A DNA stretch of 64,000 nt, taken from NCBI GenBank assembly GCA_945907065.1, contig CAMDSC010000005.1:1-64000 (forward strand), in the 5' to 3' direction. This stretch comes from Chitinophaga pinensis (GTDB lineage: Bacteria; Bacteroidota; Bacteroidia; NS11-12g; UBA9320). Below the pieces are notes generated by a model that searched no databases, was not told the origin of the DNA, and worked only from the letters and a program-made list of their open reading frames with translations. Numbering within the stretch: the stretch's first letter is position 1; every line of letters starts with the position of its first letter. The position numbers and the translations under genes are program-made. Of the stretch, positions 28,877 through 35,631 are shown piece after piece.

Positions 28877-28880
28877 CTAA

Positions 28881-29256
28881 GCAAACTAGCCTGTCGCTTT
28901 TGGTAGTGTTTAGGCACAATCTGAAGAGGAAAGTCCGGGCAACACAGAGCAGCACACTCTCAGAAATGAGAGGTTTCGGGATAAACTCCGAAAACAGAAA
29001 GTGTTACAGAAAATGACTACCTGAGTTTCGCAAGAAGCAAAGGAAAAGGTGAAAACGCGGAGTAAAAGCCCACGCATTATGCAGCGATGTATAGTTGGAA
29101 AAAACCTTGTGCGTTGTAAGACCATGTATACCTTGTCCAACGGGTGGCTCGCTCGATTTCAGCTTCGGCTGAAAGACAAGGAGGGTAGGTCGCATAGATA
29201 AATGACAGGCATCGTAATCGAAAGATTAAGATACAGAACCCGGCTTATCGGTTTGC
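28881..29256 (+). ncRNA. rnpB: RNase P RNA, bacterial type A
   Basis: The universal core is present: GAGGAAAGTCCGGGC near 28923 (5' part of P4 and CR-I), ACAGAAAATGACTACC, GGTGAAAACGCGGAGTAAAAG, AGGGTAGGTCGCATAGA, and at the 3' end ACAGAACCCGGCTTATCG, which closes P4. GCAAAC (28881-28886) pairs with GTTTGC (29251-29256) as helix P1, which sets both ends. A T-run follows (29257-29265), probably the terminator. The RNA removes 5' leaders from tRNA precursors. Small open frames on the opposite strand here are chance. Confidence 0.96.
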
Positions 29257-29289
29257 ATTTTTTTTGAATAGAATTTATAAAAATATAAA

Positions 29290-33600: not shown

Positions 33601-35202
33601 CTACAACTTTACAAACTTAGCAGAATAAAGCATTTCATTGGATTTGATCTTCAGGAAATAAACCCCTTGAGGCAATTGTGAAATATCTATTTGGTTAGAC
33701 TTTGGATTTTCGTTTACCATAAATTGTTTTCCTGTCATATCAATAATTTCAAAGTTTTCAGGGTTTTGAACATCAGCAGTAATAAAAGTTGACGAAGGAT
33801 TGGGATAAATTTTTATTTTATTATTTGAAATTTTTTCAATAGAAATGGGTTTTACAACTAAACCATCTATACAAAAATAAGCTGGGGTATTCATCCCAAA
33901 TTGTCCGTTATCACTCGATTCTAGATAAAATTCGATACGTTGTACTCTGTCATCCAACCCACGGGAGATAAAACCCCAATCGTTAAGTAATAGTTTTTGG
34001 CTTTTGCTGTAATCAGCCAACATAAATTTAAAGGTATCGATAGGCATATTTTTTTTATTAAAGCAAATCATGTTTAGTTTTAAATAATCAGGATCATTGC
34101 CCGATGTGCCACCAAATTTTTTACTGAACGAACTACCATTTTTCATATCCTTGTAAGTGTAAGTGCTATTTGTAACTCTAAAATTTAAATTAAAAGCCTT
34201 ACCCTTCCATCCGTATGGCAATCGAATGCTAGTTCGTCCATAAGCCACAGCATAGCCCCCTCCATTAGGTTCTATTGCTATATGTTGGGCGGCAAAACTT
34301 GATTTAGAAGTGTCTTTTTGGCGGCTAAGTGCCCAACCACTCCACGAATTCCATTGGGTGTTGTATGAATTTTCAAAATATAGACCGTTGTATAAAAAAC
34401 CACCCGAGGTATCCTGATGCCCGTCCCAAATACTATCATTTTTCAAAAGTTCTAAATTATCGAAATTCCTATTTTCATCAGCGGCAAAGAAACGTGACTG
34501 AGTATTTACATCGTCAATAGCAACATACGTTGGGGTATTAATTCCAAATTGCCCTACATCACTGGATTCAAAACTTAAACCCAAACTATCCGAAATATTA
34601 AAATTACTTAAATCTACCCAAGTCCAATCTCTTAAAATATAATCTTTGGTATTATCAACATTTTGAAAATCCGCTAAATAAAATCGAAGCGAATCTGATT
34701 TAACCCCACCAGAATAGCTTTCAATTTTAAGCCTAAACCAGTCTTTATCATTTCCGGTTGCTCCACCAAACTTTTTTGAAATAAAAGAACCTTCCTGAAT
34801 TGTTCTGTAAGTATAAGTAGTATTGGTAACATAAAATCCGGTGAGTTTGGTAGGTTTTTCACATTTAATTGTTCCACCCAAATAACACACAGCATAATTT
34901 TTTGTGCCGTTAATTCCTCCTCCTGTAATGCTACTATACTCGTTGGTATAGCTATTGGTTATGGTATCCATATTGTTTGAAACGGCTATACCCGACCATG
35001 ATTTCCAGGCGGTATCATAACTGTTATGATACTGAAAATGCCCGTTCCAAAAGCCGCCCTTCAGATCGCTGCCATTGTAATGGCCACTTGTTTTTAAAGA
35101 TACTACATCAAACGTAGAAACATTAGTTCGCATTTCGTTTTGGGCAAAAGTTAAAGAACCAAGAACCAAAACCATTAAAAGAGTAAAGATTGATTTATAC
35201 AT
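33601..35202 (-). CDS. T9SS-secreted protein with two DUF4465 domains
   Basis: After a signal peptide (ending near LTFAQ) the 533-residue protein has two similar halves of about 200-220 residues. Each contains the DUF4465 blocks GFWNGHFQYHNSYDTAWKSW / GFLYNGLYFENSYNTQWNSW, NTTYTYRTIQEGSFISKKFG / NSTYTYKDMKNGSSFSKKFG, LADF and ESSDxGQFGxNTPxY. A type IX sorting domain follows (KIYPNPSSTF, ending YSAKFVKL). A cobalamin riboswitch lies upstream on the same strand, so expression should fall when B12 is plentiful. DUF4465 proteins recur with B12-uptake genes in Bacteroidota, so surface cobamide binding is a reasonable inference, not shown here. Confidence 0.88.
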   Translation of the reverse strand: MYKSIFTLLMVLVLGSLTFAQNEMRTNVSTFDVVSLKTSGHYNGSDLKGGFWNGHFQYHNSYDTAWKSWSGIAVSNNMDTITNSYTNEYSSITGGGINGTKNYAVCYLGGTIKCEKPTKLTGFYVTNTTYTYRTIQEGSFISKKFGGATGNDKDWFRLKIESYSGGVKSDSLRFYLADFQNVDNTKDYILRDWTWVDLSNFNISDSLGLSFESSDVGQFGINTPTYVAIDDVNTQSRFFAADENRNFDNLELLKNDSIWDGHQDTSGGFLYNGLYFENSYNTQWNSWSGWALSRQKDTSKSSFAAQHIAIEPNGGGYAVAYGRTSIRLPYGWKGKAFNLNFRVTNSTYTYKDMKNGSSFSKKFGGTSGNDPDYLKLNMICFNKKNMPIDTFKFMLADYSKSQKLLLNDWGFISRGLDDRVQRIEFYLESSDNGQFGMNTPAYFCIDGLVVKPISIEKISNNKIKIYPNPSSTFITADVQNPENFEIIDMTGKQFMVNENPKSNQIDISQLPQGVYFLKIKSNEMLYSAKFVKL

Positions 35203-35244
35203 ATTTTTATTTTTTTCCTTTCAAAATTTTAAAGACGAAAAATC

Positions 35245-35300
35245 TAAAAAAGGCTAATAAAAAAGTATCAGACTTTTTCAGCTTTTGTTCCCGAAAGCCT
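35245..35300 (-). terminator. Possible attenuator of the cobalamin riboswitch
   Basis: Read on the minus strand, AGGCT (35300-35296) can pair with AGCCT (35254-35250) around an inner AAAAAGT-ctgat-ACTTTTT hairpin, and six T follow (35250-35245). This lies between riboswitch and start codon, where a terminator switch is expected. Confidence 0.45.
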
Positions 35301-35317
35301 CTAAAATATGTTTGATT

Positions 35318-35495
35318 ATGGTAGGTTTTCTGACTTACTCCTGTTTTTTACTACCTTCCCATCCGCCTTAGGCGGACAGTGGCTTTAAGTGTAAAAAACA
35401 TTGACGGAGCTTACAGCATCGGGCAATGTTCCGGAATTTCACCGGATTCCCTTTTAATTTCAATTTCCAGATTAAAGAAGTTGAAACCCAAAATC
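35318..35495 (-). promoter_or_regulatory. Cobalamin (adenosylcobalamin-type) riboswitch
   Basis: Read on the minus strand the element shows the family landmarks in order: GGGTTTCAA (35489-35481), AAAAGGGAATCCGGTGAAAT, TCCGGAACATTGCCCGATGC, TGTAAG, the B12 box GCCACTG (35383-35377), a GTCCGCC-TTA-GGCGGA-type hairpin, GATGGGAAGG, and AGTCAGAAAACCTACC, whose end pairs with the 5' GGTTTC as P1. It ends about 115 bases before the DUF4465 gene. Ligand type is inferred from overall architecture. Confidence 0.9.
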
Positions 35496-35631
35496 ATGGG
35501 CAAAAGTAAATTAATAATTGAGATTACAAGGAAAATATTTAAATAATGAATTTAACTTATACTTAAATTTAGGTTTACTCTAAATTGAAAATTCGTGATA
35601 ATTTGTTCAAATCCTTTCAGCCTCTTTTTTG

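What the first reader, a model, noticed from the sequence alone, without database searches (positions are those of the whole stretch)
33601..35495. Cobalamin riboswitch controls a duplicated-DUF4465 T9SS surface protein away from any B12 transporter
The riboswitch core (B12 box GCCACTG, P1 pairing) lies about 115 bases before a protein of two DUF4465 domains and a T9SS sorting domain, with no btuB, btuG or ABC genes beside it. DUF4465 proteins recur near B12-uptake loci, and I recall (not verified here) that the B12-binding BtuH surface proteins of Bacteroides carry this domain. A tandem pair delivered by T9SS instead of as a lipoprotein would be a different form of cobamide capture.
Basis: partly seen in the sequence, partly recalled or inferred. 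Interest (0 to 1): 0.6.

Follow-up and report, generated by a model that had tools for sequence, protein, structure and literature searches.

The report
Double vitamin B12-capturing surface protein
A bacterium that probably cannot make vitamin B12 appears to switch on, when B12 runs short, a secreted or surface protein with two B12-binding domains in a row; in related genera this gene sits beside the B12 importer, but in this genus it has moved away and carries its own B12-sensing RNA switch.

Summary
A cobalamin riboswitch (RF00174, 96.2 bits, window 35303-35507, minus strand) lies 100 nt before a 533-aa protein with two DUF4465 domains (151 and 126 bits) and a T9SS type A sorting domain. No B12 transporter gene is beside it. 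One point is wrong: DUF4465 is the BtuJ family, not BtuH. B12 binding has been shown for eight DUF4465 proteins (PMC13398666, PMC12751083), and both halves keep the four hydrogen-bonding residues shared by BtuJ1 and BtuJ2. The isolation is positional only: the genome's one other cobalamin riboswitch precedes btuB, an unnamed T9SS-tailed protein and btuG. In the family's other genera, 21 of 22 tandem genes sit in that operon straight behind btuB (the 22nd is cut by a contig end). In all seven genomes of the window's genus the gene stands apart with its own riboswitch. The sister family has a single DUF4465 domain at the same operon position. Best reading: a B12-repressed, T9SS-delivered, two-site B12 capture protein, made by an old domain duplication and later moved out of the btuB operon. 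Binding, location and B12 response are inferred, not measured. New variant of a known kind.

The parts
35303..35507 (-). Cobalamin riboswitch aptamer
   Evidence: RF00174, 96.2 bits, E=1e-22, model positions 1-189 of 189
35280..35299 (-). P13-like hairpin GGCUUUCGGGAACAAAAGCU; loop CGGG is complementary to GCCCG in L5 of the aptamer
   Evidence: Present after nearly every aptamer examined; pairing with L5 read from the sequence, not tested
35246..35279 (-). Terminator-like hairpin ending in a U run
   Evidence: Folds at -7.6 kcal/mol, z -3.96; similar hairpin in six of seven genus leaders. The simple consensus scan did not list it, its stem being A-U rich
33601..35202 (-). Tandem DUF4465 (BtuJ-type) T9SS protein, 533 aa, N-terminal Sec-like signal, no lipobox seen
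   Evidence: signal read by eye
34507..35010 (-). First DUF4465 domain; Y130, N222, T223, Y226 match BtuJ1 Tyr146, Asn241, Thr242, Tyr245
   Evidence: 151.5 bits; alignment to solved chains and residue table
33859..34356 (-). Second DUF4465 domain; Y348, N438, T439, Y442 match the same BtuJ1 residues
   Evidence: 126.3 bits; alignment to 9FCT and other chains and residue table
33607..33810 (-). T9SS type A C-terminal sorting domain
   Evidence: TIGR04183, 60.2 bits in genome search, 56.4 bits; one of 139 such matches in the genome

Best explanation
The gene encodes a BtuJ-type B12 capture protein with two binding domains, exported by Sec and the type IX secretion system to the cell surface or the medium. 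When internal cobamide is high the riboswitch binds it and shuts the gene off, probably by ending transcription at the hairpin after the aptamer; when B12 is short the protein is made. It binds scarce B12 outside the cell and passes it to the BtuB-BtuG importer, which a second riboswitch controls on another contig. The tandem arose by one domain duplication early in this family, inside the btuB operon, and in the window's genus the gene left the operon and has its own riboswitch. Shown here: riboswitch, domains, conserved binding residues, T9SS signal, the two-riboswitch set, operon position in relatives. Inferred: B12 binding by each half, surface or medium location, termination, hand-over to BtuBG, direction of the move.
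For: Riboswitch and domains. DUF4465 binds B12 in eight distant members (PMC13398666; PMC12751083). All four hydrogen-bonding residues shared by BtuJ1 and BtuJ2 are kept in both halves and nearly fixed across 31 family sequences. The only other cobalamin riboswitch in the genome precedes btuB-P330-btuG. The same gene sits behind btuB in 21 of 22 tandem genomes of other genera. The weak AlphaFold model still finds nine DUF4465 chains as its best PDB matches. The genome has B12-dependent mutase and MetH matches and no CbiC.
Against: No binding, location or expression data exist for this protein. The model is low confidence (mean pLDDT 52). Two DUF4465 proteins in tandem have not been tested for two-site binding. 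The mechanism by which ligand binding would favour the terminator is not worked out. MetH is split over contig pieces, so its integrity is not shown.
Confidence: 0.82

Rival explanations
1. Only one half binds B12; the other is a spacer or docks on BtuB, BtuG or the cell surface.
For: In several genera one half has Phe in place of the Tyr245 equivalent (five first halves, two second halves; one second half has Cys for Tyr146). In this genus the second half has longer branches than the first.
Against: In the window protein both halves keep all four residues, and both match the family at full length.
Confidence: 0.25
2. The protein is released to the medium, or to vesicles, as a B12 trap that is later collected, rather than staying fixed at the surface beside BtuB.
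For: It has a T9SS tail and no lipobox; BtuJ proteins of B. thetaiotaomicron act on vesicles (PMC12751083); T9SS cargo can be released or anchored (general knowledge).
Against: T9SS type A cargo is often anchored to the surface (general knowledge); nothing here separates the two.
Confidence: 0.35
3. The riboswitch acts on translation rather than by transcription termination.
For: In the genus's btuB leaders a similar P13-like hairpin sits close before the start codon and no second hairpin was seen.
Against: In the tandem leaders the start codon lies 100 nt or more after the aptamer, with a terminator-like hairpin between in six of seven genomes. Termination is also the proposed mode for the B. 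thetaiotaomicron riboswitches (PMC12751083).
Confidence: 0.25

Closest known systems
BtuJ1 and BtuJ2 of Bacteroides thetaiotaomicron (PMC12751083; 9FCT, 9QPM, 9I2L)
   Same: DUF4465 domain, same four conserved hydrogen-bonding residues, riboswitch-controlled, B12 uptake setting
   Different: Single domain, lipoprotein, encoded in btu operons; here two domains, T9SS tail, own riboswitch away from btuB
D5EK51 of Coraliomargarita akajimensis and the other family members tested (PMC13398666; 9HMU)
   Same: Best sequence and fold match for both halves; B12 binding shown
   Different: Single domain; the paper's text that was read mentions lipoproteins and periplasmic signals, not tandem domains or T9SS
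Sister-family operons, for example L093 (riboswitch-btuB-DUF4465-P330-btuG)
   Same: T9SS-tailed DUF4465 gene between btuB and btuG, riboswitch upstream
   Different: One DUF4465 domain instead of two; still in the btuB operon

Membership tests
DUF4465 / BtuJ B12-binding proteins | PF14717 match over the curated cut-off | tested here: met
   151.2 and 126.0 bits against 25
DUF4465 / BtuJ B12-binding proteins | Conserved hydrogen-bonding residues Tyr146, Asn241, Thr242, Tyr245 (PMC12751083) | tested here: met
   Present in both halves
DUF4465 / BtuJ B12-binding proteins | High-affinity B12 binding | not testable with these tools
   Needs protein and titration
Cobalamin riboswitch RF00174 | Covariance-model match over the gathering score | tested here: met
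   96.2 bits against 31.5, full length
Cobalamin riboswitch RF00174 | Expression falls with B12 | not testable with these tools
   Needs a reporter or transcript data
T9SS type A cargo | C-terminal TIGR04183 sorting domain with an N-terminal signal | tested here: met
   Sorting domain 56.4 bits against 23; the signal peptide was read by eye only; 139 such tails in the genome
T9SS type A cargo | Secretion by T9SS | not testable with these tools
   Needs fractionation or a secretion mutant
BtuH | Similarity to the BtuH B12-binding domain | tested here: not met
   No BtuH chain among the sequence matches or the 50 fold matches listed; the BtuH paper does not mention DUF4465

The most novel reading that the evidence does not exclude
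A two-site exported B12 trap whose amount is set apart from that of its importer: out of the btuB operon, with its own riboswitch and a terminator-type platform, while btuB keeps a hairpin close to its start codon, so that capture and import respond at different B12 levels.
Probability: 0.25. Interest if true: 0.6.

Novelty: new variant of a known kind. Interest (0 to 1): 0.45.

Why it matters
The DUF4465 study describes its proteins as lipoproteins (over 70%) or as carrying periplasmic signals; tandem domains and T9SS delivery are not mentioned in the parts read (PMC13398666, parts 1-4 of 5), and no paper in the held library joins DUF4465 with T9SS. This locus and its relatives form a natural series: single domain in the operon, tandem in the operon, tandem on its own. 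That makes the value of two sites, and of separating capture from import, directly testable. It also gives a small two-riboswitch B12 set in an organism that lacks CbiC and so probably depends on outside B12.

Tried and rejected
BtuH assignment rejected. Control of the divergent carA by the riboswitch rejected: it is on the opposite strand. Origin of the tandem riboswitch as a recent copy of the genus's btuB riboswitch: the 50-aptamer tree does not show it and leaves the origin unresolved. An antiterminator pairing between the 5' arm of the P13-like hairpin and the terminator's 3' arm was judged by eye; it fits the window but breaks in other genus members, so it is not claimed. A structure model of the P330 protein failed (pLDDT 36). 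Literature searches found no paper joining DUF4465 with T9SS.

Full report
The cobalamin aptamer scores 96.2 bits at 35303-35507 on the minus strand. The 533-aa gene downstream has two full-length DUF4465 matches and a T9SS type A tail, and no btu gene lies beside it. The two halves are 37% identical.

What the domain is. DUF4465 is the BtuJ family. BtuJ1 and BtuJ2 bind cobalamin tightly and carry it on vesicles in B. thetaiotaomicron (PMC12751083), and six further members chosen to span the family also bind B12 (PMC13398666). The hydrogen-bonding residues shared by BtuJ1 and BtuJ2 are Tyr146, Asn241, Thr242 and Tyr245 in BtuJ1 numbering. Aligning the window halves with solved chains places Y130, N222, T223, Y226 of the first half and Y348, N438, T439, Y442 of the second on these residues. 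Across the 31 family sequences aligned (two without a second half) the positions are nearly fixed; the main departure is Phe for Tyr at the Tyr245 position in five first halves and two second halves.

The genome. It is 2.70 Mb, 99.9% complete, and has two cobalamin riboswitches and this one DUF4465 gene. The second riboswitch precedes btuB, a 330-aa protein with a weak T9SS tail (called P330 here) and btuG. The btuB and btuG products match the solved Bacteroides BtuB and BtuG chains. The genome has methylmalonyl-CoA mutase and MetH matches, the MetH match being split over two contigs, and no CbiC, which fits dependence on outside B12.

Relatives. In the window's family, 31 of 38 genomes have DUF4465: 29 tandem genes, one single-domain gene (G010) and one cut by a contig end (G031). 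In the other genera 21 of 22 tandem genes lie straight behind btuB, and the 22nd begins at a contig end; P330 and btuG follow wherever the contig reaches. Most of these genomes have one riboswitch, before btuB. In all seven genomes of the window's genus the tandem gene has its own riboswitch upstream and shares flanking genes with the window (carA, the ABC gene, or both). In six of the seven, including the window's, the btuB-P330-btuG operon was found without the tandem gene, near a second riboswitch; in the seventh (G005) no second riboswitch was found. The sister family has single DUF4465 genes in the same operon, with a riboswitch before btuB in the 17 loci whose contigs reach that far. Elsewhere in the phylum DUF4465 is rare: 8 of 247 genomes over the cut-off, the window's own included, and no other tandem.

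Origin of the tandem. On the tree of halves, first halves group with first halves and second with second across genera, with one outlier, so the duplication most likely happened once before the family's genera split (quick tree, modest support). Because both the family's other genera and the sister family keep the gene in the operon, leaving the operon is the simpler reading for the window's genus. Stand-alone riboswitch-DUF4465 units also exist elsewhere: L008 is a single-domain lipoprotein-like form among housekeeping genes, and L006 a similar form followed by P330.

Regulation. After the aptamer comes a P13-like hairpin whose loop CGGG is complementary to L5, then a terminator-like hairpin with z -3.96 in the window and a counterpart in six of seven genus leaders. 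In the genus's btuB leaders the start codon follows the P13-like hairpin within a few tens of bases and no second hairpin was seen. The tandem unit may thus use transcription termination and the btuB unit translation control; this is inference.

Limits. No binding, location or expression was measured. The full-length model is weak (mean pLDDT 52), though its nine best PDB matches are all DUF4465 chains and T9SS sorting domains also appear. Sister-family T9SS tails were confirmed by Pfam only for L093, and outside that family for L007; the rest were read by eye. Signal peptides and lipoboxes were read by eye.

Noticed in passing
L005:10167-11159 (+); relatives at L006:3993-4973 and L007:6983-7975, and in the family operons: P330: a conserved protein of B12 operons with a T9SS tail and no other Pfam family. 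It may be another exported B12-handling protein; a two-sequence structure model was too poor to use.
   Followed up: partly
Own genome G000 and genus mates: No FecCD (BtuC-type) permease match in the window's genome or in five of six genus mates; only G003 has a strong one. Most other family genomes have only weak matches. How B12 crosses the inner membrane is open.
   Followed up: partly
window 28878-29263 (+): RNase P RNA, bacterial class A, 170 bits.
   Followed up: no
L008:4610-5874 (+): A stand-alone cobalamin riboswitch with a single-domain lipoprotein-like DUF4465 gene among housekeeping genes in another Bacteroidia MAG: the lone arrangement recurs.
   Followed up: partly
L105:1717-2325 (+): A DUF4465 domain inside an 886-aa open frame in a sister-family genome (G084), a different architecture.
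   Followed up: no
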